Assembly (NCBI RefSeq): GCF_004339665.1
Contig: NZ_SMMU01000027.1
Coordinates: 1-48,108, forward strand
Length of the DNA: 48,108 nucleotides
From: Azotobacter chroococcum
Lineage (GTDB): Bacteria; Pseudomonadota; Gammaproteobacteria; Pseudomonadales; Pseudomonadaceae
Reading direction: 5' to 3'
The translations under genes were made by a program, and so were the position numbers. The notes beneath the pieces were generated by a model. The model did not search any database. It was given only the letters and a program-made list of their open reading frames with translations, and had not been told where the DNA came from. This document shows positions 40 through 48,108 of this stretch, piece by piece; position 1 is the first letter of the stretch; each line of letters starts with the position of its first letter.

Positions 40-972
40 TTGTTCTCCCGATCGATTATCGGGGGAGTTTACGCAAACACCTTGAAAGGGCTGGTACTCA
101 GTGCGCCACGCCGCCTGAGCCTGGTGGGCCGGCGCCCGGTGCCGGCCGACGCCTGGCCGTTGCTGGGCCTGGCGCTGGCGTTGGTCGCCGTGCTGCTCGT
201 TGGCGGTCCCGGTGCCATCGCCTTTCCGATGCTGGCGCTGCTCTGGTGCGCGCTGCGCTTCCGGCCGTTCAGCGTGGCCCTGCTCGGCCTGCTCAGCGGG
301 GCGGTGGAGATCGTCATGGTGGCGGAGAATCTCGCCCACTTCGGCCCGCTGCATAACAGTGCCGGCGTCGACACCCTGGCCTCCGCCCGCCTGGGCATCG
401 CCGTGCTGACCCTGGGTCCGCTCAGCGTGGCCGCTGTCGGCGCCCTCGACCGGCGCCTGCTGCGCCGCCTCGCCCGGCGCGCCAATCACGACTCCTTGAC
501 CGGCGCGCTGGTCCGCCGCGCGCTGACCCAGGGCGTCGAGAGGCTGCTCGAGCGGCGCCGGCACTGCGGCGATCTGCCCATCTCGCTGCTGATGATCGAC
601 CTCGACCACTTCAAGACGATCAACGACCGCCACGGTCATGCCGCCGGCGACCAGGTGCTGCGCCAGCTCGCCCGGCTGCTGGGCAGCCTGTTGCGCCGCG
701 AAGATCTGTTCGGCCGGCTGGGTGGCGAGGAGTTCGTCATGGTGCTGCCCGGGGTTCGGACCGACGAGGCGATGCTGGTTGCCGAGCGGCTGCGGCAAGG
801 GGTCGAGCGGATGGAGTGGCCGGAAGGGATGCGGGTCACCGTCAGCGTCGGGGTCGGCGCCCTGGATGACGGGACGGCCGGCCAGCCACTCGAGCAGCGC
901 CTGGCGCGGGTCGACGAGGCGCTCTACCAGGCCAAGGCGCAGGGTCGCAACCGCGTGGTGCGCGCGGCTTGA
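40..972 (+). CDS. GGDEF diguanylate cyclase, membrane-anchored, probably 5'-truncated
   Basis: The C-terminal half is a GGDEF domain that would make cyclic di-GMP from two GTP. It has the metal-binding stretch LLMIDLDHFKTIND, the active-site motif GGEEF (accepted variant of GGDEF), and an RxxD product-inhibition site (RRED) five residues before it, so activity and feedback inhibition look intact. The N-terminal ~145 residues hold several hydrophobic segments resembling the end of a larger sensory membrane module such as MASE1. The frame opens at a TTG at position 40 with no convincing ribosome-binding site, next to what looks like a transposase gene end. The gene has probably lost its own start and first membrane segments. 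Whether the remnant is expressed cannot be told from sequence. Confidence 0.75.
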   Translation: MFSRSIIGGVYANTLKGLVLSAPRRLSLVGRRPVPADAWPLLGLALALVAVLLVGGPGAIAFPMLALLWCALRFRPFSVALLGLLSGAVEIVMVAENLAHFGPLHNSAGVDTLASARLGIAVLTLGPLSVAAVGALDRRLLRRLARRANHDSLTGALVRRALTQGVERLLERRRHCGDLPISLLMIDLDHFKTINDRHGHAAGDQVLRQLARLLGSLLRREDLFGRLGGEEFVMVLPGVRTDEAMLVAERLRQGVERMEWPEGMRVTVSVGVGALDDGTAGQPLEQRLARVDEALYQAKAQGRNRVVRAA

Positions 973-1085
973 GCCTGAATCCGGGCGTGCCCACGCTCCC
1001 TGTGCAGGGAAGGGGCCGACAGGGTGAACAACGCTCTGCTTGTCCAGCGCTCCCCTTCAGGCCCGCTGCCCGAAGCGGGCTGGCC

Positions 1086-1292
1086 TCAGATGCACAAACT
1101 CCGCTTGCCCCGATACAGCACCGGGAGCTTGGCGCACTCGTCCCGGCCGGGCGGGTTCGTTTCGACGAGCGGCATGTCGTTTTCGGGGATATCCGGGCCG
1201 GATGCGGGACGACGCGGCCCGGTGGCCAGGTATACGGAAAAGGCGAGAAGAACCACGACCAAGGCGCTGGAAACAATCGGATCGGCGATCAT
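1086..1292 (-). CDS. small single-pass membrane protein (68 aa), unknown function
   Basis: The product begins MIADPIVSSALVVVLLAF, one hydrophobic segment of about 18 residues, and continues into a soluble Pro/Asp-rich tail with a CAKLP stretch and a C-terminal Cys-Ile. I chose the ATG at 1292 over the longer in-frame start because GGAGG stands six bases before it (GGAGGTAACG-ATG). I do not recognise a family. The good ribosome-binding site and the clean membrane segment suggest a real inner-membrane protein with its tail in the periplasm or cytoplasm. It stands alone between genes on the other strand. Confidence 0.6.
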   Translation of the reverse strand: MIADPIVSSALVVVLLAFSVYLATGPRRPASGPDIPENDMPLVETNPPGRDECAKLPVLYRGKRSLCI

Positions 1293-1497
1293 CGTTACCT
1301 CCGGAAGGCATGGGCTTTTCAATAGGTGCCTACATATGAGCTTGCGTCACTATGCCGCAGCAGGGGCATTGCAGGCAATCGACTTACGTCGGGTAGGGAT
1401 ATGGCGGTGCGCTTCATCCACCTGTAACCGTCTTCTGCTCGATCCTGTCCCTCAGTGGTGCGCCTAGACTGAGAGCGAGCGAATCAGGGGAGCCTCC

Positions 1498-2439
1498 ATG
1501 GAGTTCAAGGACTATTACGCGATGCTCGGCGTGGAGCCCACGGCCGACGAGAAGACCATCAAGACGGCCTACCGCCGGCTGGCGCGCAAGTACCATCCGG
1601 ACATGAACAAGGAGGCCGGCGCGGAGAACCGCTTCAAGGAGGTGGCCGAGGCCTACGAGGTGCTGGGCAACGCGGAGAAGCGCGCCGAATACGATCAGCT
1701 GCGCCAGTACGGCCGTGCCGGCGAGCAGTTCGAGGTGCCGCCCGGCTGGCAGCGGGCGCACGGTTTCGGCGGGGCGCACGAGCATTTCGGCGGCGATTTT
1801 TCCGACTTCTTCGAGTCGATCTTCGGCGGCCGGCCGGGTAGCCATCCGCACGCCCAGGCGCCCCGGCGGGGCCGGGACATCGAGCTGGAGCTGCCGGTGT
1901 TCCTCGAGGAAACCCTTGGCGAGCACAGCAAGCCGATCGACTACAGGGTGCCCAGCTTCGACGAACACGGCCAGCGAACCGATCGGCACAAGAGCCTCAA
2001 CGTCAAGATTCCCGCCGGCGTCACCGATGGCGAGCGCATCCGCCTCAAGGGCCAGGGCGCGCCGGGCGTCAACGGCGGACCGAGCGGCGATCTGTACCTG
2101 TTCATCCGCCTGGTTCCCCACCCGCTCTTCGATGTCGATGGCCACGACCTCATCCTCACCGTGCCCCTGGCGCCCTGGGAGGCCGCACTGGGCGCGCGGA
2201 TCGAAGTGCCGACGCTGTCCGGGCGCATCCACCTGAGCATCCCGCCGGGCAGCCAGAGCGGCCAGCGCCTGCGCATCAAGGGCAAGGGACTGAAGGACAA
2301 GCACGGCGTCGGCAATCTCTATGCCGTACTGAAGGTGGTGATGCCGCCGCACAGCGACGAACACGTCCACAAGCTCTGGACCCAGCTGCGCGACGCGGCG
2401 GGCTTCGACCCGCGCAGTCAATGGAGCAACCCCGAATGA
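1498..2439 (+). CDS. cbpA: CbpA, DnaJ-type (class II J-domain) co-chaperone and curved-DNA-binding protein
   Basis: 313 residues. An N-terminal J domain (about 5-70) carries the HPD tripeptide at 33-35 that stimulates DnaK ATPase. A Gly/Phe-rich linker (about 80-120, with [12 protein letters not shown] and FFESIFGG) follows, then two beta-rich substrate-binding domains (130-300). There is no zinc-finger CxxCxGxG region, which separates CbpA from DnaJ. CbpA acts as a DnaK partner in stationary phase and binds curved DNA. GGGAGCC stands just before the ATG. The stop codon overlaps the start of the CbpM gene (ATGA), as in the conserved cbpAM operon. Confidence 0.95.
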
Positions 2440-2741
2440 GCACAACCCTGACCGTGCAACTGACCCTGGAAGAGTGCTGCCAGCTGGTCGAGGTGCCCGC
2501 CGAGAGCCTGATCGAGATCGTCGAACACGGCATCGTCGAAGCGGGCGGTGGCAGCCCCCGGGACTGGCGCTTCGAGCCCGCCGCCCTGGACCGGCTGCGT
2601 CAGGCGCTGCGCCTGCAACGCCAACTGGAGCTCGACTGGCCGGCGGTGGCCGTGGCGCTGGACCTGCTCGACGAAGTGGCGCGCCTGCGCGCCGAGAACG
2701 AGAGCCTGCGACGGCGGCTGTTGCGCTTCATGGAGCCGTAG
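2436..2741 (+). CDS. cbpM: CbpM, modulator of CbpA (MerR-like helical protein)
   Basis: 101 residues beginning [17 protein letters not shown]. CbpM binds the J domain of CbpA and blocks both its co-chaperone and DNA-binding activities. The sequence has the typical MerR-like N-terminal helices ([25 protein letters not shown]), an aromatic-acidic [10 protein letters not shown] stretch and a leucine-rich C-terminal helix ([19 protein letters not shown]). The start is fixed by the ATGA overlap with cbpA, implying translational coupling. An in-frame ATG 15 bases upstream lies deeper inside cbpA and is less likely. Confidence 0.9.
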
Positions 2742-2853
2742 CCTGCTTTGCGCCCGAGAAAGCTGCTGCTTCGGAAAGAGGGGCGGCTTCCGGGGGGCAG
2801 TCCGGGTCGGGGTGACTGGCATGAACGCCTATCGAAGCTGACGCCAAACCCTG

Positions 2854-3150
2854 TCAGTCCAGGCGTTTGCCAGCCTGGCCGTAGACTGCCTCATCGTCGC
2901 GCCTGCCGACGGAAATCACGTAGACCACAAGACGCTGGTCGATCACCTGGTAGACCAGCCGGTAGCCCACCGATCCGAGCTTGATCTTGTAGCAGTCCTT
3001 GAGCCCATGCAGCTTGTCGCCCGGCACCCGGGGATCGATCAGACGCTCGCGAAGCTTGCGAGTGAACTGCTTGCGGACATCTTCGCCGAGCTTCTGCCAT
3101 TCCTTCCTGGCGGCCTTGTCGAACTCGAGGCTGTAGTGAGACTCAGACAT
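2854..3150 (-). CDS. RelE/ParE-superfamily toxin
   Basis: 98 residues (MSESHYSLEFDKAARKEW...). It follows the compact RelE fold: an N-terminal helix with FDKAARKEWQKL, the strand-turn PGDKLHGLKDCYKIKL, and the core YRLVYQVIDQRLVVYVISVGRR. In RelE-type enzymes this core holds the basic residues that cut ribosome-bound mRNA. The ATG at 3150 lies inside the last codons of the upstream antitoxin gene (8-nt overlap), the usual antitoxin-first arrangement. Cytoplasmic; normally held inactive by the antitoxin. RelE and ParE folds overlap, so the target (mRNA or gyrase) is not settled, but the sequence favours RelE. Confidence 0.85.
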   Translation of the reverse strand: MSESHYSLEFDKAARKEWQKLGEDVRKQFTRKLRERLIDPRVPGDKLHGLKDCYKIKLGSVGYRLVYQVIDQRLVVYVISVGRRDDEAVYGQAGKRLD

Positions 3151-3424
3151 CCTCGTCCTCGAACAGGATGTCATCGCCGACGATCCGGGCACGGACCGGA
3201 GGCTCGCCGGTGTCGAGGCGCTCCCTGACCTCCCTGGCCAGCTTGAGGTCGTCGATGTAGTCCAGCAGCGCTTCGTAACGCCCGGCCGGAATGCAATAGA
3301 AGGCCGGCTCGTTGCGGTTCAGGATGGCGACGGCTTCGCCACCCCCAGCCTCCACGGTACCCATCGGATTTTTCTTCAGGTCCGTGATGGAGGCGACAAC
3401 GCTGGCGAGCATGGGATGTGGCAC
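3143..3424 (-). CDS. Phd/YefM/RelB-type antitoxin
   Basis: 93 residues. The N-terminal DNA-binding part (ASVVASITDLKKNPMGTVE and VAILNRNEPAFYCIP) is the Phd/YefM pattern. The C-terminal acidic tail (ARIVGDDILFEDEDV) would wrap the toxin. The start is a GTG at 3424 with AGGAG eight bases upstream; the ATG at 3412 has no such spacing. It is the first gene of a two-gene operon with the RelE-like toxin and probably represses its own promoter in the 3425-3500 region. Confidence 0.85.
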   Translation of the reverse strand: MPHPMLASVVASITDLKKNPMGTVEAGGGEAVAILNRNEPAFYCIPAGRYEALLDYIDDLKLAREVRERLDTGEPPVRARIVGDDILFEDEDV

Positions 3425-3567
3425 GGTGATCTCTCCTGGGTGAGTCTCGCTGGAGCGACTTATGGTAGCACTCTGAAAGGTGCTCTACAGGGTATTGTTC
3501 ATTGACCTGCATGTCGTCCGGTGCGCTTGCCATGCAGGGTCTGAGCCGCTTTGGGGCGCCGATGATC

Positions 3568-3592
3568 GTGCCCGGGCTCCTGCGTGGGCACG
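3568..3592. repeat. REP-like palindrome, single degenerate copy (family F)
   Basis: A CGTGCCC...GGGCACG palindrome around the core CTCCTGCG, flanked by GATC, in the spacer between the antitoxin promoter region and the methyltransferase gene. It belongs to the same family as the paired copies near 13.4, 18.8, 34.7, 42.4 and 43.4 kb. One arm carries changes (GGG in place of ACG). The remaining ~200 bases to 3716 also include the short palindrome GGACACGGAGTGTCC at 3618-3632 and otherwise show nothing I recognise. Confidence 0.6.
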
Positions 3593-3716
3593 CCACAAGG
3601 GAGGTTCCCGCATCCCCTGGACACGGAGTGTCCACTGGCCCGACTCCCGGCCTTTTGCCGCAGGGGAAACCCCGTCTGCGTTTAAAATGCGGGCAACGCA
3701 CAACCGACGATGCCCC

Positions 3717-4682
3717 ATGAACTCAGAAGCCCTCGATACCCTGCACCAGCATCTGCTCGCCGCCTTGAGCCCCGCCCCCGAAGAGGCCCGTCGTCTGTTC
3801 CACGGGCGGGGGCGCCGCTGGGTGGGGCTCGAGCATGTCACCGTCGACTGGTTGCAGGGCGTGCTGCTGGTGTCGCTGTTCCGGGAACCGGCAGAGCCTG
3901 AGGGGGAGGCGTTGCGGCGGATGCTCGTGGCGCTTGCCGGGTCGCCCGCCTGGCGGCACAGCGACGCGCATTCGCTGCTGCTGCACCACCGCTACCGGCC
4001 GGACAGCGCGACGGAGGTGCTGCTGGGCGAGGCCGTGGAGGAATGGCCGATCACCGAGAATGGCCTGCGCTACCGGCTGGAGCTGGGCAGGAAGCAGAAC
4101 AGTGGCCTGTTCCTGGACATGCGCTACGGGCGCCGCTGGGTGCAGGCCCAGGCCCGCGGCAAGCGCGTGCTGAATCTGTTCGCCTACACCTGCGGGTTTT
4201 CCGTCGCCGCGATTGCCGGTGGCGCCGAGCATGTGGTGAACCTGGACATGGCCAGGGCGGCCCTGAGCCGCGGACGGGACAATCACCGCCTGAACGGCCA
4301 TGACCTGGCGCGGGTGACCTTTCTGGGCCATGAGTTGTTCAAGTCGTGGGGCAAGGTGAAGAAGTACGGCCCCTACGATCTGGTCATCGTCGACCCGCCT
4401 TCCTTCCAGAAGGGCAGCTTCGCCCTCGCCACGGACTATCAGAAGATCCTGCGCCGCCTGCCCGAGTTGCTCAGCGGGCAAAGCTGCGTCCTGGCCTGCA
4501 TCAACGACCCGGGCATCGGCCCGGACTTCCTCATCGAACAGGCGGCCCGCGAGGCGCCGGGCCTGCGCTTCGAGCAGCGCCTGGAAAATCCGCCGGAGTT
4601 CGCCGACATCCAGTCCGACGGCGGCCTGAAGGCCCTGGTGTTCAGCCAGGCCGGCGCCGCCCCGGCAAGCCGGACGGCATAG
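3717..4682 (+). CDS. class I SAM-dependent methyltransferase (RlmI/RlmK-like fold)
   Basis: 321 residues. The AdoMet-binding core is clear: motif I VLNLFAYTCGFSVAAIAGG, an acidic NLDMARAAL at the end of strand 2, and the catalytic-type motif IV DLVIVDPPSFQKG. An N-terminal domain of about 110 residues precedes it. DPPSF is typical of enzymes that methylate a base ring nitrogen or carbon in rRNA, so an rRNA (cytosine or guanine) methyltransferase is likely but the target is not certain. I chose the ATG at 3717, where homology-like sequence begins; an in-frame ATG at 3687 is an alternative. No strong ribosome-binding site is visible at either. Confidence 0.8.
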   Translation: MNSEALDTLHQHLLAALSPAPEEARRLFHGRGRRWVGLEHVTVDWLQGVLLVSLFREPAEPEGEALRRMLVALAGSPAWRHSDAHSLLLHHRYRPDSATEVLLGEAVEEWPITENGLRYRLELGRKQNSGLFLDMRYGRRWVQAQARGKRVLNLFAYTCGFSVAAIAGGAEHVVNLDMARAALSRGRDNHRLNGHDLARVTFLGHELFKSWGKVKKYGPYDLVIVDPPSFQKGSFALATDYQKILRRLPELLSGQSCVLACINDPGIGPDFLIEQAAREAPGLRFEQRLENPPEFADIQSDGGLKALVFSQAGAAPASRTA

Positions 4683-31045: not shown

Positions 31046-34453
<3,408 letters not shown>

Positions 34454-42491: not shown

Positions 42492-42872
42492 TCAGGCCCG
42501 AGAGGCCGGCTTGATCAGACTTTCCGCTGGAATGCCGAACATGCTGTGCAGCCGCCAGACCATCGGCAGAGTGAGCGCGCGCTTGCCATTCAGGACTTCA
42601 TACACGCGATTGGTCCGCCCGATGGCCGGCTCCAGATCCTTCGCCGTCAGGCCGGATTGCTCCATGCGGAACTTGATGGCGTCAATCGGGTTCGGCAGGT
42701 CCACGGGGAAGTGCTTCGACTCGTAGGCCTCGATCAGCGTGACCATGACGTCGAAACGATCGCCTTCCGGCGTGCCGGGCTCCGGCTCATGATCGAACAG
42801 GGCCGACACTTCCTTGAGCGCTGCGCGATAGTCTTGATCAGTGCGAATCGGACGAATGTCCATGGCGGTCAC
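42492..42872 (-). CDS. higA: HigA-type helix-turn-helix antitoxin
   Basis: 126 residues. The C-terminal half is an XRE-like helix-turn-helix (FRMEQSGLTAKDLEPAIGRTNRV, then VLNGKRALTLPMV). The N-terminal part (IRTDQDYRAALKEVSALFDHE) is the HigA N-terminal type. It lies after the toxin gene, the reversed order typical of higBA; a GTG start at 42872 overlaps the toxin stop by GTGA, and an ATG at 42863 is the alternative. It should bind the palindrome upstream of higB. Confidence 0.88.
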   Translation of the reverse strand: MTAMDIRPIRTDQDYRAALKEVSALFDHEPEPGTPEGDRFDVMVTLIEAYESKHFPVDLPNPIDAIKFRMEQSGLTAKDLEPAIGRTNRVYEVLNGKRALTLPMVWRLHSMFGIPAESLIKPASRA

Positions 42873-43171
42873 TCCATCTCTATGGTGTCGGCATCAATGG
42901 CGTCATATTGCGCATGGGTGCCGACAAACTTGATGTAAATGGCGCCGAAGCGGTAGGCAACAGCAACAACCAGTCGGTAGCTATTGCCTTTGATGTTGAA
43001 GACAACCCGCCGGCTTTTGAGAATGCTCGCATTGCGAAACTGAGCCTTGATTTCGGCCGGGCTCGACCAGTTGGCTTTCCTGGCTTCATCGATCCAGGCA
43101 AGAAGCGGCTGTTCGGCATCCGGGTATTTATCCCAGAAGGCTGTCAGGTGGCTGATGGCGATAATTCTCAT
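42869..43171 (-). CDS. higB: HigB-type mRNA interferase toxin
   Basis: 100 residues (MRIIAISHLTAFWDKYPDAEQ...). The core is RelE-superfamily HigB_toxin type: ANWSSPAEIKAQFRNASILK, VVFNIKGNSYRLVVAVAYRF and IYIKFVGTHAQYDAID. The FxxKGNxYRLV and the FVGTHxxYDxI motifs are the signatures of this family. It cuts ribosome-associated mRNA when free of HigA. First gene of the operon. Confidence 0.9.
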   Translation of the reverse strand: MRIIAISHLTAFWDKYPDAEQPLLAWIDEARKANWSSPAEIKAQFRNASILKSRRVVFNIKGNSYRLVVAVAYRFGAIYIKFVGTHAQYDAIDADTIEME

Positions 43172-43678: not shown

Positions 43679-43731
43679 TGAAACAGCATTACTCACCACT
43701 TGTGGGGAGAGTCCATATACATTTGTTAGCT
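43679..43731 (-). other. degenerate attC-like site after the PIN gene
   Basis: On the minus strand AGCTAAC (43725-43731, holding the stop codon of the PIN gene) begins a hairpin with an ACTCTCCCCAC-AA-GTGGTGAGT stem (43691-43712) that has extra unpaired bases on one arm, as in integron attC sites. AGCTAAC is the exact complement of GTTAGCT at the other end of the gene, as required for a cassette's two ends. The far core site is not canonical (GTTTCAA), so it may be decayed. Confidence 0.5.
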
Positions 43732-44832
43732 CTCGCTTCGACTTCTTCTATTGAAAATAGAATCTACTGACAAATTACTGGCGGTTTCATTCTTGGTGTC
43801 GTACTCAAAGCTTCCATCAATACAAGTTCTAAGTATAAATGATAGCTTGGCGTGGTCGTCTTCGATGTTGATGTTGTACAGGGATTTAGTCGACTCTATC
43901 TCGCTTGCGTATTGCTTGTATTCTATGGCGTCAATCGTGATGGCTAAGTCGACACTTCGCATTTCAAAGTAGGCTTCGATATAGACGTTGTCACCGGAAA
44001 GACGTTTAACAGATTTTACTTCTGGGTCTTCCAAACCCTCAAAAACATCTGATTCTATATCTATAACTGGAGTCAGTTTGTCGGAGAATACTTTATTATC
44101 CAATAGCTGGCTAATATCGCCATTGCTCATTGAGTTCAAATAGTCCTCTGTTTCGGAGATTAAGAAGTGCTCTAGATTGTCCAGTATTTCGTGGCGATCA
44201 AATGAGTGAGATATTTTATCAACATTCTCGTTGACGAAATCATAAATGTTTAAGTATGGCCTAATGTTGGCTTTTATTTTATATTCTTCGATGTCTCTCA
44301 ATAGGTCATTATTGAAAGATAGATTGTTTCCGTTTGATTGGAAGAAGTCGTGCTTGTTGTTTGTTATAAAGGCGACGTTTCCTTCTATTTTGTTTGAGGA
44401 TAAATAATTTAAGAATGACAGCCAGATCAATGTGTCTCTATATCCTTTTTCTTGATTGGAAAAAGGTTTTACTAGCTTAATGGCTCTTTCTACTACCTTG
44501 CTTTGAGGTATGCAGTCATATTCGATGCTATCAATCCAATCGACTTTCTCCTTCAGTATTTTGACAAGGTCATAAGGCTGAAACCCAAGATCATCGATTG
44601 TGAATTTTAAATTTCTCGAATTTAACTGCTCGCCCTTCTTTATAAGCCTGCTTAATTCCGATTTAATTTCATTGAGCTCGCGCTCTCTGATGTTATTTGT
44701 TTCTTGCGCAACTAAGTCGGAGAGTAGCAGTTCGTGCTGTTCATTGTTCAAAAAGTAAAATAAGAGTTTGAAATTTGCATTGCTTGCAAACCAATTTTTG
44801 TAAAAAGCATTAGTATCTAAAAATACTTTCAT
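43726..44832 (-). CDS. PIN-domain protein (DUF4935-like), AT-rich cassette gene
   Basis: 368 residues. MKVFLDTNAFYKNW gives the first PIN Asp; further acidic residues occur in LVAQETNNIRERELNE, GYRDTLIWLSFL and FITNNKHDFF. This is the order of the four PIN-site acids of DUF4935-type proteins, which are predicted RNases in defence islands. The C-terminal ~180 residues are AT-rich, charged and not recognised. The gene is far AT-richer than its neighbours and sits in what looks like an integron cassette, so it is probably acquired. Whether it is a toxin or an anti-phage effector is unknown. Confidence 0.75.
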   Translation of the reverse strand: MKVFLDTNAFYKNWFASNANFKLLFYFLNNEQHELLLSDLVAQETNNIRERELNEIKSELSRLIKKGEQLNSRNLKFTIDDLGFQPYDLVKILKEKVDWIDSIEYDCIPQSKVVERAIKLVKPFSNQEKGYRDTLIWLSFLNYLSSNKIEGNVAFITNNKHDFFQSNGNNLSFNNDLLRDIEEYKIKANIRPYLNIYDFVNENVDKISHSFDRHEILDNLEHFLISETEDYLNSMSNGDISQLLDNKVFSDKLTPVIDIESDVFEGLEDPEVKSVKRLSGDNVYIEAYFEMRSVDLAITIDAIEYKQYASEIESTKSLYNINIEDDHAKLSFILRTCIDGSFEYDTKNETASNLSVDSIFNRRSRSES

Positions 44833-44871
44833 TAAAGATTGTTCTCAAGTTGCTTGCGTTCTATGGGCGTG

Positions 44872-44931
44872 AGCTAACGCCCAGCATCAGCGGCGGAGCG
44901 AAGCACCGTCCGCTGCATGCTGTTGTTGGGC
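44872..44931 (-). other. attC-like recombination site (integron cassette end)
   Basis: On the minus strand GCCCAAC (44925-44931, R'' box RYYYAAC) and GTTAGCT (44872-44878, R' box) enclose CAGCATGCAGCGG...CCGCTGATGCTG, an imperfect hairpin with an extrahelical G. This is the build of attC sites. The translated end of the gene (NSMQRTVLRSAADAGR) is the kind of tail often seen at the ends of cassette-encoded proteins, since the attC is read through. Confidence 0.7.
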
Positions 44932-45926
44932 AACTGAAGCTGGATGCCCCACTTCGGTGGGTACCACTGAGGGATCGGGGCCGGGCGCGGCGTGTACTTT
45001 TGCTTAATGCGGGTTCGCCCGGACTCGCCCTTGATCTCGGGGTGCGCAACGCGCGCGTACTTGCTTACCTCGCAGAACACGTTCTGGCAGTCGATGAGCT
45101 GAAGACTGCGGCCCCAGAGGCTCTGGAACCTCACGCCCAGCCGCTCGAACTCGTCGTCCGCACGTGCTGCCATGACGTGAATAATCTCGGCCTCACTCAG
45201 GCCCGCCGTGTCACTGAAGCACTTGCTGATGCCATCCCGAGCTCCGGGGCCCGCCACGACGAACTCCATCTCGGAGAAGTCGGTCAGCTCGCTGTAGTTG
45301 ATGTCGATGGCGAACTGGAACGCGAGAAAATCCCCCAGCGACGGATAGCCGCGCAGCAGCTCGAATGCTCCTCGAAGCGAGCCTGCCTTCGCAATCTTCT
45401 TCGGGGCTCCATCGGTCATCATGTGCTCGATAAGCCGCAGGTGGTTGCGGTGCTTGCGCGGGCTACCGAATGCTGGTGACGGCATGATGTACGCGGCCGA
45501 GTAAACGCGCTCGCCTTCCTCCAGCAGGCCGTCCAACACTTTCGCATATGCGTCGAACGAAAAGTCTCCCCAGCTCAGCGCGCCGAGCCTCGAGCACAGG
45601 CTCTCCCACGTTTCGATCTTGTTGAAGAGCTTGAACAACATCGTGCGGAAGAAGACCTCCTCGGCCTTCTGCGAGCCCTCATAGATCACGTGGCGAATGA
45701 GGTACTGACTCACACGATCCGATGCGCGGTACGCGTTCGTGAAGCGATGCCCGCTTAGGATCGGATCCTCCGTCCACGGCGGCATGGTGCCGAGCACGCG
45801 GCGCATGAACATTTCCTGACGCTGCGAGGCGAAGCGCCAGTATGTGTCGAACACGGGCGTCGTCTTGAGTACGCGCCCGCCCGGCAGCCGGATGTCGTAA
45901 GCAGCCCGCATCCTCAATCCGTCCAC
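44874..45926 (-). CDS. 5-hmdU DNA kinase helical-domain-like (base hypermodification family) protein
   Basis: 350 residues. The conserved core FDTYWRFASQRQEMFMRRV, DPILSGHRFTNAYRASDRVS, IRHVIYEG and FKLFNKIETWE, then SPRKHRNHLRLIEHMM, FLAFQFAIDINYS, FVVAGPGARDGI and LIDCQNVFCEVSKYARVAHP, is, from memory, that of the HMUDK_hel/aGPT-Pplase group predicted in phage-type base-hypermodification pathways. No catalytic mechanism is established here. The start is a GTG at 45926 with AGGAG four bases upstream; ATG at 45911 is an alternative. It is the last gene of the MazG-TIR operon, and its tail runs through an attC-like site. Confidence 0.7.
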   Translation of the reverse strand: MDGLRMRAAYDIRLPGGRVLKTTPVFDTYWRFASQRQEMFMRRVLGTMPPWTEDPILSGHRFTNAYRASDRVSQYLIRHVIYEGSQKAEEVFFRTMLFKLFNKIETWESLCSRLGALSWGDFSFDAYAKVLDGLLEEGERVYSAAYIMPSPAFGSPRKHRNHLRLIEHMMTDGAPKKIAKAGSLRGAFELLRGYPSLGDFLAFQFAIDINYSELTDFSEMEFVVAGPGARDGISKCFSDTAGLSEAEIIHVMAARADDEFERLGVRFQSLWGRSLQLIDCQNVFCEVSKYARVAHPEIKGESGRTRIKQKYTPRPAPIPQWYPPKWGIQLQLPNNSMQRTVLRSAADAGR

Positions 45927-46459
45927 GCTGCTCCTGTCCGATTCCTTCCGAAAGAGTCTCGCGAATTGTCGGGGTTCACGCGGCTCCGCCGCTCATAGGC
46001 CGCGTGAATCCAACCCTGGACGGTTGCCGCATCATCCGACCACGGATGGATGCTCGCGAATCCGCACTCGATATTGTCGTGAAGACGTGGAGGAATCGTG
46101 TACGAGTTGTACATGGAGAACGCTGGGCGCGGGTAGGAGGGGAGGATAATGCCGAGCAGCCCCGACCGGGAGTTGAACTGCGTGTGCCGAATCGATGACC
46201 CGATTTCCCAATCGACGTGCTTGCGCTGCCACGTCTCCGCACCGATCAAGACTACGGTCACCGAGGTGTCCCGAAGATACTCGTCTCGGATCTTCTGCCG
46301 GATGGTATCCGTCGACAGGTACGGGTTGATGTCACCAACCTGCACCGAACCCGGCACGATAGCGCCGAAGGTGTTCCCGAAGCGCTGCTCAAAGAGCCTC
46401 TTGTAGCCCTCATCGAGCGCATGGTGGTAGCTGACAAAAACCCTATGTCTGGTGCTCAT
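45914..46459 (-). CDS. TIR-like (DUF1863/MTH538, ThsB-type) protein
   Basis: 181 residues. RHRVFVSYHHALDEGYKRLF is the FVSY/H start of a TIR-like fold, followed by STDTIRQKIRDEYLRDTSVT, VVLIGAETWQRKHVDWEI and GIILPSY. The Glu in DWEI is at the place of the TIR catalytic Glu. Proteins of this group serve as sensors or NAD-consuming signal makers in anti-phage systems (Thoeris ThsB). It starts 7 bp after the MazG-like gene and its end overlaps the hypermodification-like gene, so the three are one operon. Confidence 0.8.
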   Translation of the reverse strand: MSTRHRVFVSYHHALDEGYKRLFEQRFGNTFGAIVPGSVQVGDINPYLSTDTIRQKIRDEYLRDTSVTVVLIGAETWQRKHVDWEIGSSIRHTQFNSRSGLLGIILPSYPRPAFSMYNSYTIPPRLHDNIECGFASIHPWSDDAATVQGWIHAAYERRSRVNPDNSRDSFGRNRTGAAWTD

Positions 46460-46466
46460 ATCGTTC

Positions 46467-47588
46467 CTAAAGAAGTTGGTGCCTCTGCTTGGCGTGATCG
46501 CCGCTCACGGAGTGGGGCTCGTAGATAAGTTGGCGGCGCCCCATGTCGAGCGTCACGCGTCCGCCAGGGCCAGTACATAGCGCGCGGAATATGCGATAGC
46601 CGTCAAGGATTGCGGTCTCCCATTGCCACAGGGGGACGATCTCGACCTCGAAGCCCTCGACGAACTCCTTGACCGTCTTCAGTAGATCCAAGTCGACGTG
46701 ATCGAGCCCCTCGAAGAACTTGAGCTGCTTGGCACGGCTGAAGACAATCGCGGAAACCGCCTCCTCTATGATGCCTGCACGCGCGCCATCCTGCGCCTCG
46801 TCGACCGTCGAGTCGCTCTTGCGCTTGGTCCGCATGAGCGCACGCACAACCGGCGACCACCCGAGATGCACCGCGTAGGCGAAGTGGAATATGTCGTGGA
46901 AGCGGTAACCATCCGGGTCTTCAATATTGTCGGTGAGTCGGTCACCGAAGTTGATGTCATTACACCGCAGGATGACGGCCCGGTGGTTGCCACGCGCGCG
47001 TTCGAGGAAGTCGACCTGCAACCGTCGAGGAAGCTGCTCCTCTACCGGGAAGGCATCGTCGAAGAGGGGCACGTAGCGCTTCTCGTCGGGCCAGCGGCTC
47101 CTAGTCTTCTCCGTGTTCCGCACGGCAGCATTGCATAGGCAGACGTCGGCATCATTGGCGATCGCCGCCAGGAGCACCCACACACGCCTCAGGGGCGTCC
47201 TTATGTCGTCGTGCCTCGATGCGCTGACCGCCGCGAGCACCTCGCCCACGGCCGCTCCGAAGTCAAGATGCTCCGGAAGCTGAGTGCTATCCGCAGCCGG
47301 GAGCGCGATCTTGTCGGGCTCGGGCAACTCCTCGAGCAGGCCGGGTACGGTGACCGCAGTGAGGCGCACGAAGTACCAGAGGAAGTCGCCAATCTCCTCA
47401 ACCACCTTCTCGCGGTAGACCGGGTAGGCATCACGCTCACGACACTTTTTCTTCAGCTCCGCGACGACGCTACCAGCTTCGCCTATCAGGCCCATTGCGA
47501 GCAGCGCGGCGTGGTCTGGCTTGTCGTTAAACTTGTCGGTCTTAGCTGCGCGCGCAGCGAATTCGAGCAGCCAGTGATTGTCCGTCAT
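46467..47588 (-). CDS. MazG-like nucleotide pyrophosphohydrolase with C-terminal helical domain
   Basis: 373 residues. The N-terminal ~110 residues are a MazG/all-alpha NTP pyrophosphatase: ALLAMGLIGEAGSVVAELKK and VVEEIGDFLWYFVRL give the ExxE...ExxD metal-site pattern. The C-terminal part (ILRCNDINFGDRLTDNI, YRFHDIFHFAYAVHLGWSPV, ARAGIIEEAVSAIVFSRAKQL) is, as I recall, a MazG_C domain noted in DNA-modification and conflict operons. It would hydrolyse (d)NTPs or modified nucleotides. AGGAG stands six bases before the ATG. It is second in a cut operon. Confidence 0.8.
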   Translation of the reverse strand: MTDNHWLLEFAARAAKTDKFNDKPDHAALLAMGLIGEAGSVVAELKKKCRERDAYPVYREKVVEEIGDFLWYFVRLTAVTVPGLLEELPEPDKIALPAADSTQLPEHLDFGAAVGEVLAAVSASRHDDIRTPLRRVWVLLAAIANDADVCLCNAAVRNTEKTRSRWPDEKRYVPLFDDAFPVEEQLPRRLQVDFLERARGNHRAVILRCNDINFGDRLTDNIEDPDGYRFHDIFHFAYAVHLGWSPVVRALMRTKRKSDSTVDEAQDGARAGIIEEAVSAIVFSRAKQLKFFEGLDHVDLDLLKTVKEFVEGFEVEIVPLWQWETAILDGYRIFRALCTGPGGRVTLDMGRRQLIYEPHSVSGDHAKQRHQLL

Positions 47589-47608
47589 AGCGCACTCCTG
47601 CGTGTAGC

Positions 47609-47699
47609 TCACTTCGCCGCAGGAGCCGCTGCTCGCTCGTGCTTTGCAAACTCCAGGGGATCACCCTGTACGCCCCATTTGCCCTCGCTCTCAAGCCAG
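47609..47699 (-). pseudogene. 3' end of an interrupted gene upstream of the MazG-like gene
   Basis: Reading from the edge of the IS towards the MazG gene gives WLESEGKWGVQGDPLEFAKH and seven more residues, then TGA. Only 29 codons remain; they end 20 bp before the next start, spacing that fits an operon partner. The rest of this gene must have been on the far side of the IS or lost. I cannot name it. Confidence 0.6.
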
Positions 47700-47749
47700 T
47701 GAACCGCCCCGGGTTTCTCGGAGGCTCCAACCTTTGAGAGGATGGAGCC

Positions 47750-48073
47750 ATGAAGACAGCAACGAAGTATTCCCCTGAAGTCCGGCAACGGGCGGTTCGC
47801 ATGGTGCTCGAGCATCAGGACGAGCACGAGTCGCAGTGGGCGGCGATCCACTCCATCGCGGCGAAGATCGGTTGCACGGCCGAAACGCTGCGCCGCTGGG
47901 TAAGGCAGGCCGAACGCGATACCGGACTTCGTGAGGGGCAGACGACGCCCGAGCGTGAACGGATCAAGGCGCTCGAGCGGGAAGTGCGTGAGCTGCGACA
48001 GGCCAACGAGATCCTGCGCAAGGCCTCGGCGTATTTTGCCCAGGCGGAGCTCGACCGCCGCTTCAAGCGATGA
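47750..48073 (+). CDS. IS3-family transposase OrfA
   Basis: 107 residues. [20 protein letters not shown], then a helix-turn-helix [21 protein letters not shown] and a leucine-zipper-like C-terminus ([22 protein letters not shown]...). This is the DNA-binding half of an IS3-type two-frame transposase. The stop overlaps the ATG of OrfB (ATGA). Confidence 0.92.
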
Positions 48074-48108
48074 AGGCCTTCATCGACGATCACCGCCAGG
48101 TCTACGGG
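48070..48108 (+). CDS. IS3-family transposase OrfB (partial)
   Basis: [13 protein letters not shown], the first 13 codons of the DDE-type catalytic half of the IS3 transposase, cut by the right edge. It overlaps orfA by 4 nt. Confidence 0.85.

What the first reader, a model, noticed from the sequence alone, without database searches (positions are those of the whole stretch)
44872..47699. MazG - TIR - base-hypermodification-like operon: possible undescribed anti-phage system
A MazG-type pyrophosphohydrolase, a ThsB-like TIR protein and an HMUDK_hel-like protein are packed into one operon (gaps of 7 bp or overlaps) and end at an attC-like site. Each family is known from predicted phage-conflict or DNA-modification contexts, and the TIR type is used in Thoeris, but I know of no tested system with this set. 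One idea: the MazG or kinase-like protein handles modified phage nucleotides while the TIR protein senses or signals. A partner gene upstream was destroyed by an IS, so this copy may be partly inactive.
Basis: partly seen in the sequence, partly recalled or inferred. Interest (0 to 1): 0.85.

Follow-up and report, generated by a model that had tools for sequence, protein, structure and literature searches.

The report
Six-gene TIR defence operon, IS-split
The three genes are the back half of a recurring six-gene bacterial operon, probably an anti-virus alarm, that links NAD-consuming TIR enzymes to proteins that may recognise or handle chemically altered DNA bases; here a jumping gene has cut it in two.

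Summary
MazG/MazG_C, a ThsB-like TIR protein and an HMUDK_hel protein form a tight minus-strand operon, and the ordered trio recurs in 7 of 80 fetched relatives. But the trio is half of a larger module. In relatives the order is TIR-SLOG, TIRa (ThsB-like), Nmad2, MazG_C, TIRb, HMUDK_hel. In this genome an IS3-type element cuts Nmad2 at 47700; the first half of the operon is on contig C45. The presumed catalytic Glu of the small TIRs is kept in 20 of 20 aligned rows. TIRa adjoins Nmad2 in 20 of 20 Nmad2 loci. Four relatives have the module inside or directly after type I restriction genes, one beside a CRISPR array. Predicted folds hint that Nmad2 is a PUA-like modified-base reader and HMUDK_hel a DNA-glycosylase-like base handler; both matches are weak but coherent. 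Best reading: a Thoeris-like, NAD-signalling anti-phage system triggered by base-modified DNA or nucleotides. Components are partly predicted in print (DefensePredictor); I found no description of this set. Defence is inferred; this copy is probably inactive.

The parts
46467..47588 (-). MazG-like pyrophosphohydrolase domain + MazG_C domain, 373 aa
   Evidence: Pfam MazG_C 1e-77, MazG 0.015 (below cut-off); PHROG 229 1e-35; acidic E37, E44, E64, D68 invariant in 25 of 25 aligned rows, E40 is Ser in the TIR-type group
45914..46459 (-). TIRb: ThsB-like TIR protein, 181 aa, presumed catalytic Glu E85 kept
   Evidence: Pfam ThsB_TIR 5e-17; PADLOC ThsB 1e-09; E85 invariant in 20 of 20 aligned rows; the alignment profile hits solved ThsB structures 6lhy and 9b7d
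44874..45926 (-). HMUDK_hel protein, 350 aa (last 17 residues of low confidence, encoded in the attC-like hairpin); no kinase domain found
   Evidence: Pfam 2e-114; AlphaFold2 mean pLDDT 91; glycosylase-like fold matches
47609..47699 (-). C-terminal remnant (29 codons and stop) of the Nmad2 gene; its first 98 codons are on contig C45 of the same genome
   Evidence: comparison with intact relatives; Nmad2 PF18753 on C45, 1.2e-45
47700..48108 (+). end of an IS3-type element (terminal repeat 47700-47726, orfA 47750-48073); the contig ends here, probably inside the element
   Evidence: terminal repeat 25 of 27 identical to the repeat on C45; PF01527 3e-11; contig length 48108
44866..44935 (-). attC-like hairpin at the 3' end of the operon
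   Evidence: fold z -4.05; integron integrase TIGR02249 4e-145 elsewhere in the genome; not proven to be attC

Best explanation
The window holds the 3' half of a Thoeris-like, NAD-signalling anti-phage operon with a built-in base-modification module. Proposed working: Nmad2 (PUA-like reader) and HMUDK_hel (glycosylase-fold protein that could flip or grip a base) bind 5-substituted pyrimidines in invading DNA or nucleotides, and MazG_C trims or clears the matching nucleotide. TIRa, coupled to Nmad2, and TIRb then turn NAD+ into a signal, which the SLOG domain of the TIR-SLOG protein senses, so that its own TIR domain drains NAD+ and stops the infected cell. Shown by sequence: gene set, order, recurrence, kept presumed catalytic residues, defence neighbourhoods in some relatives. 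Suggested by predicted structure: the two base-handling folds. Inferred: the trigger, direction of signalling, and outcome. In this genome the operon is interrupted in Nmad2 and probably does not work.
For: Families. Operon in relatives: (all six components in 9 of 80 loci, collinear in 7). TIRa and Nmad2 adjacent on one strand in 20 of 20 Nmad2 loci. TIR-SLOG only in Nmad2 loci, 13 of 13. Effector swap: a small protein with a hydrophobic N-terminus (membrane protein by eye) upstream of TIRa in L010 and L041, and after Nmad2 in L060. Enzyme swap: MazG slot of L010 holds a protein closest to CMP 5-hydroxymethylase (6e-25); MazG within 4 kb against hydroxymethylase/radical SAM on the same strand within 4 kb of HMUDK_hel is nearly exclusive (2 of 56 against 16 of 24, p 3e-9). 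Defence context: hsdM-module-hsdS-AlbA-hsdR in L004 with 4-base overlaps at both joints, hsdM, hsdS and hsdR in the same places in L008, hsdR directly upstream in L003 and L005; type I Hsd genes in 7 of 20 Nmad2 loci against 2 of 60 others (p 6e-4); Cas1, a CRISPR_assoc protein and a 61-base-period CRISPR array in L042. Presumed catalytic Glu: 20 of 20 rows of the two small TIR families, WCxxE motif in 12 of 12 TIR-SLOG proteins looked at. Nmad2 fold. HMUDK_hel fold; residues shared with phage M6 gp55. Patchy: HMUDK_hel in 2 of 144 genomes, the host's own included.
Confidence: 0.45

Rival explanations
1. Self-marking: HMUDK_hel and MazG_C (or the hydroxymethylase) help write a modified pyrimidine into host DNA or its nucleotide pool; Nmad2 reads it; the TIRs fire when the mark is missing or host DNA is destroyed.
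For: HMUDK_hel is of the same family as a protein of a phage with hypermodified thymidine (M6 gp55) and shares 27 of 66 invariant positions with it; hydroxymethylase-, thymidylate-kinase-, dCTP-deaminase-like and radical-SAM genes occur in related loci; embedding in type I restriction operons.
Against: In the 7 collinear six-gene loci no hydroxymethylase-, thymidylate-kinase-, dCTP-deaminase-like or radical-SAM gene was found by profile, and the host genome gave no match to the 5-hmdU kinase or amino acid:DNA transferase families (no positive control rang in those two searches), so a writing pathway is not visible.
Confidence: 0.2
2. Base-modified nucleotide signal, like Kongming: the nucleotide enzymes make or police a modified dNTP that itself switches on the TIR proteins; DNA is not read.
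For: Kongming uses dITP, a nucleotide-binding partner and an NADase (review PMC12948488, passages); MazG family profile is closest to dCTP pyrophosphatase 1 among solved structures; MazG slot exchangeable with a pyrimidine hydroxymethylase-like protein.
Against: No nucleotide-making enzyme seen in the 7 collinear loci; predicted folds of Nmad2 and HMUDK_hel look like nucleic-acid readers, though such folds can also bind nucleotides.
Confidence: 0.2
3. Thoeris-like signalling is the whole system, and the MazG/HMUDK_hel pair is a separate neighbour (another defence module or an accessory) that merely travels with it.
For: The TIR label needs about 12 changes on the HMUDK_hel tree (at least 9 on starred branches), so modules are exchanged; TIRb with a TIR-SLOG relative occurs on a plasmid with no HMUDK_hel hit in the stretch taken (L086).
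Against: Interleaved order (TIRb between MazG and HMUDK_hel) kept in 7 loci; in the window's clade of 10 rows (100/98 support) 8 have all six genes (the window's own copy split), L005 lacks TIRb and L010 has two genes exchanged.
Confidence: 0.12
4. Not defence: a base-salvage or DNA-repair operon.
For: DNA-glycosylase-like and queuine-salvage-like fold matches; house-cleaning role of MazG proteins (recalled).
Against: Three TIR proteins in the set, patchy distribution, restriction and CRISPR neighbours.
Confidence: 0.03

Closest known systems
Thoeris types I and II (ThsB TIR + ThsA)
   Same: ThsB-like TIRs with presumed catalytic Glu; TIRa of this genome matches the PADLOC ThsB profile PDLC00418 at 1.3e-54; an effector candidate with a SLOG domain; an alternative membrane-protein-like partner in some loci
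   Different: Effector candidate is TIR-SLOG, not SIR2-SLOG or TM-macro; two small TIRs; extra Nmad2, MazG_C and HMUDK_hel
Phage thymidine hypermodification genes (e.g. Pseudomonas phage M6 gp54/gp55, 5-hmdU DNA kinase)
   Same: HMUDK_hel family (M6 gp55, 8e-56), shared invariant residues
   Different: No P-loop kinase partner found (M6 gp54, PF18748), no amino acid:DNA transferase found (gp51, PF18724); located with TIR genes in bacteria
DefensePredictor systems (PMC13092281)
   Same: Reports validated defence units with a 5-hydroxymethyluracil kinase domain and a thymidylate synthase, and predicts (not validated) MazG, MazG-C, aGPT-Pplase and NMAD systems (sections 5 and 7 and passages read)
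   Different: The word TIR was not found in its main text; gene maps are in figures that are not held, so overlap with this operon cannot be checked
Kongming (base-modified nucleotide, dITP, drives NAD depletion)
   Same: Nucleotide enzyme + nucleotide-binding protein + NADase logic (review passage)
   Different: No deaminase or SIR2 domain among the six genes; TIR enzymes instead
Modification-dependent (type IV) restriction with PUA-like readers (McrB-N, EVE; grouping recalled)
   Same: Predicted reader-like fold of Nmad2
   Different: No nuclease among the six genes; output would be NAD signalling

Membership tests
Thoeris | ThsB-type TIR with catalytic Glu | tested here: met
   PF08937 5e-17; Glu invariant in 20 of 20 aligned rows (its catalytic role is recalled); sequence hits to solved ThsB
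Thoeris | ThsA with SIR2-SLOG or TM-macro domains | tested here: not met
   Candidate effector is TIR_2 + LD_cluster2 (SLOG) in L005 and C45; no PADLOC ThsA hit for the TIR-SLOG proteins of L005, L042 and L107
Thoeris | cyclic ADPR-type or His-ADPR signal made on infection | not testable with these tools
   biochemistry needed
5-hmdU DNA kinase | HMUDK_hel domain | tested here: met
   PF18723 2e-114
5-hmdU DNA kinase | P-loop kinase domain (PF18748 or similar) in the protein or operon | tested here: not met
   Only HMUDK_hel found in the window protein; no thymidylate-kinase-like gene in the 7 collinear loci; no PF18748 match in the host genome, though no control rang in that search (the model does match phage M6 gp54)
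MazG NTP pyrophosphohydrolase | MazG fold with metal-binding acidic residues | tested here: inconclusive
   window protein below Pfam cut-off; family profile hits dCTP pyrophosphatase 1 at 5.5e-05; four acidic positions invariant, E40 lost in the TIR group
PUA-like modified-base reader (Nmad2) | PUA-like fold | tested here: inconclusive
DNA-glycosylase-like fold (HMUDK_hel) | helix-hairpin-helix glycosylase fold | tested here: inconclusive
Kongming | adenosine-deaminase-like KomA and SIR2 KomC | tested here: not met
   no such domain in the Pfam scans of the six genes
Integron gene cassette | attC site with consensus core sequences | tested here: inconclusive
   strong hairpin, strict recalled consensus not matched, integrase present elsewhere in the genome

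The most novel reading that the evidence does not exclude
A TIR immune system gated by hypermodified bases: a PUA-like reader (Nmad2) hard-wired to a ThsB-like TIR, with a glycosylase-fold HMUDK_hel protein of the same family that phages use in making hypermodified thymidine, so that the very base changes that let phages escape restriction set off NAD+ signalling and abortive infection. It would be a type IV-like sensor with an NAD output and exchangeable effectors (TIR-SLOG or membrane protein).
Probability: 0.28. Interest if true: 0.9.

Novelty: new variant of a known kind. Interest (0 to 1): 0.68.

Why it matters
If the reading is right, bacteria have TIR alarms that respond to altered bases, which would help explain how cells detect phages whose DNA is armoured against restriction. 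The operon gives a compact, testable set (six genes, about 6 kb), a natural swap series (effector, enzyme and regulatory modules) and intact copies in several hosts. It also offers a lead on three poorly understood families (Nmad2, MazG_C, HMUDK_hel) that are partly predicted but that, in the papers I could search, I did not find described together with TIR proteins.

Tried and rejected
Rejected: that the trio is a self-contained system (three more genes belong to it in relatives). Rejected: that HMUDK_hel here is a kinase (no kinase domain found). Rejected: that TIRb is always needed (not found in L005 and L107).

Led nowhere: PDB sequence search with HMUDK_hel (best E 0.065, annexin) and with Nmad2 (0.068). 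Profile comparison of the X272 family with the hydroxymethylase family gave 1.9% probability, E 0.026, so the weak match of X272 to CMP 5-hydroxymethylase (E 0.029) stays a hint. Strict attC search. NCBIfam gave nothing for the three proteins; the best PHROG families of HMUDK_hel and the TIR have unknown function, and a weaker one of HMUDK_hel is labelled terminase small subunit. Plasmid relatives of TIRb in Acinetobacter and Citrobacter have other annotated neighbours. A paper search for the PUGT structure found nothing. A first motif pattern for the TIR-SLOG proteins was wrongly written and found nothing; the mended one is.

Literature limits: not held, so not read: Iyer 2013 (gkt573) and Burroughs 2015 (PMC4678834); both may already describe parts of this set. 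The claim that I found no description of the set rests. Of the listed papers I opened only four, by passages or sections (PMC13092281, PMC9503650, PMC12948488, PMC7824862); the rest I saw only in listings.

Part-samples: the HMUDK_hel alignment A2 used the window and 54 of 80 loci; the MazG alignment the window and 24 loci of 56; the TIR alignment 20 rows (window and 11 loci for TIRb, C45 and 7 loci for TIRa); the Nmad2 alignment 19 of 20 (L021 left out, its hit is short); the X272 alignment 18 of 58. One search kept 80 of 239 relatives, the best by score, so counts describe near relatives only. In 'near' is a rule of mine: within 4 kb of HMUDK_hel, and for hydroxymethylase or radical SAM also the same strand; L048 and L068 fell out by strand, L052 (about 2.8 kb away) was counted.
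Full report
What is there. Three genes on the minus strand end at an IS: MazG/MazG_C (46467-47588), a ThsB-like TIR protein here called TIRb (45914-46459) and HMUDK_hel (44874-45926). Pfam supports all three names: HMUDK_hel 2e-114, ThsB_TIR 5e-17, MazG_C 1e-77. The MazG domain itself falls below Pfam's cut-off in this protein (E 0.015), but its family profile matches dCTP pyrophosphatase 1 (5.5e-05) and MazG structures. PADLOC and NCBIfam gave no match for HMUDK_hel or the MazG protein.

The rest of the operon. A scan of genome contigs with HMUDK_hel gave 239 relatives, of which the tool kept the best 80. The nine closest (L002-L010, 77-89% identity) come from records labelled Planctomycetota, Myxococcota, Pseudomonadota, Actinomycetota, Bacteroidota and Spirochaetota; all but L006 are MAGs, so labels may err. 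In eight of them (L002-L009) three genes stand upstream of MazG. Pfam names the L005 copies: a 684-aa TIR_2 + SLOG (LD_cluster2) protein, a second ThsB-like TIR (TIRa, 3e-21), and Nmad2, 'nucleotide modification associated domain 2' (1e-62). All six components occur in 9 of 80 loci, collinear in 7; the exact trio of the finding occurs in the same 7. L005 lacks TIRb. L107, the only other genome with HMUDK_hel among 144 searched around the host (2 of 144 with the host itself), has TIRa, Nmad2, TIR-SLOG, HMUDK_hel and MazG in one run on one strand.

The broken copy. The window is the whole contig C27. Contig C45 of the same genome begins with the other end of the IS and continues with the first 98 codons of Nmad2, then TIRa (389-880) and TIR-SLOG (877-3096). 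The IS ends match at 25 of 27 bases, and the window's end starts at 47700. The window keeps only the last 29 codons of Nmad2 (47609-47699); about 84 residues seen in relatives are at neither edge. Nmad2 and LD_cluster2 each have one match in the genome, so no second copy is seen. The operon is therefore interrupted and probably inactive.

Modularity. Over the 80 loci (home-made profiles): MazG_C in 56, Nmad2 in 20, TIRa in 21, TIR-SLOG in 13, a distinct TIRb in 12, Xre, M78-protease and X272 genes in 57, 57 and 58, dCTP-deaminase-like in 30, hydroxymethylase/thymidylate-synthase-like in 16, thymidylate-kinase-like in 19, radical SAM in 4, a small protein with a hydrophobic N-terminus in 3. Every Nmad2 locus has TIRa (20 of 20; one TIRa, in L047, is without Nmad2), and the two are neighbours on one strand; the large L003 overlap in the listing is an ORF-start artefact. 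TIR-SLOG occurs only with Nmad2 (13 of 13) and never with X272 (0 of 13), though 4 of 20 Nmad2 loci do have X272. In L010 the MazG slot holds a protein closest to CMP 5-hydroxymethylase (6e-25; thymidylate synthases follow from 1.6e-08), and the gene upstream of TIRa encodes a 214-aa protein that looks membrane-bound (its Pfam hits are all below cut-off). MazG and hydroxymethylase or radical SAM near HMUDK_hel nearly exclude each other (2 of 56 against 16 of 24, Fisher p 3e-9). Loci are related, so p values are only a guide. On a tree of 83 HMUDK_hel rows, labelled TIR if Nmad2 is present, the window's clade of 10 rows (100/98) is wholly TIR-type, while the label needs 12 changes in the whole tree (at least 9 on starred branches; shuffled mean 20.3, 0 of 500 as low): modules have been exchanged repeatedly.

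Defence context. In L004 the module lies inside a type I restriction operon, hsdM - module - hsdS - AlbA/Schlafen - hsdR, with 4-base overlaps at both joints; L008 has hsdM, hsdS and hsdR in the same places (its AlbA-like gene I judged by eye). hsdR directly precedes the module in L003 and L005. Hsd genes are in 7 of 20 Nmad2 loci and 2 of 60 others (p 6e-4; the L007 hsdM and the L031 hits are small pieces, and the profiles were seeded from L004 and L005). L042 has Cas1, a CRISPR_assoc protein and a CRISPR array with 61-base period beside it. Against: in a sample of 398 genomes of the phylum 6 have Nmad2, the host among them; four of the five others (L103-L106) show no TIRa or HMUDK_hel in the 19.5 kb taken, and the fifth (L102) has HMUDK_hel, a hydroxymethylase-like gene, TIRa with Nmad2 and a split TIR-SLOG.

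Mechanism. The strict TIRa-Nmad2 pairing suggests that Nmad2 is the receptor arm of TIRa. If Nmad2 is a PUA-like reader, the trigger is most simply a modified base or nucleotide. HMUDK_hel may present or change that base; MazG_C, exchangeable with a pyrimidine hydroxymethylase-like protein, would act on the matching nucleotide. The SLOG domain of ThsA binds an ADPR-type signal in Thoeris (review passage), so TIR-SLOG is the likely effector. None of these steps is shown for this operon. The rivals (self-marking, a modified-nucleotide signal as in Kongming, or a loose partnership) are set out above.

Prior work. DefensePredictor (PMC13092281; sections 5 and 7 and passages) reports validated defence units with a 5-hydroxymethyluracil kinase domain and a thymidylate synthase, and lists MazG, MazG-C, aGPT-Pplase and NMAD as predicted, unvalidated; it cites Burroughs 2015 for some of these predictions. 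I could not read Burroughs 2015 or Iyer 2013. 'TIR' was not found in the DefensePredictor main text, but its gene maps are in figures I could not see. So the kind is partly foreseen; the six-gene set with TIRs, its swaps and the IS-split copy I did not find in print.

Noticed in passing
43726-44832 (-): PIN_12-domain protein (3.5e-28) just downstream of the attC-like site; among the 81 loci searched only the window's own has it.
   Followed up: partly
42492-43171 (-): HigB-type toxin (4e-32) with a helix-turn-helix partner just below Pfam cut-off: a likely toxin-antitoxin pair.
   Followed up: no
L085:4981-6114 (contig C45 of the same genome): A further TIR_2 protein (5e-17) whose N-terminal half looks SLOG-like by eye, beyond a gene at 3040-4167 that looks like an IS110-type transposase (by eye, not scanned).
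   Followed up: partly
31046-32491 (-): Nitrogenase component 1-type oxidoreductase (4e-113), possibly a bacteriochlorophyll gene; the host may be phototrophic.
   Followed up: no
L025:7092-7910 and 57 other loci: X272, a conserved family without Pfam match in the four copies scanned, near HMUDK_hel with Xre and M78-protease genes in most of its loci; weak match to CMP 5-hydroxymethylase (E 0.029).
   Followed up: partly
L096:21686-22249 (phage M6 gp54): Annotated as terminase small subunit, but matches the 5-hmdU DNA kinase family PF18748 (8e-18).
   Followed up: yes
L086 (Aureispira plasmid): TIRb, a TIR-SLOG relative and further TIR genes a few genes after type III-B CRISPR genes (cmr5, cmr6), with no HMUDK_hel hit in the stretch.
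   Followed up: partly
L032 and L050: HMUDK_hel and MazG_C in a single open frame, which supports a shared pathway.
   Followed up: partly
L109:2277-3206 (contig C56 of the same genome): A full integron integrase match (4e-145, over cut-off).
   Followed up: partly
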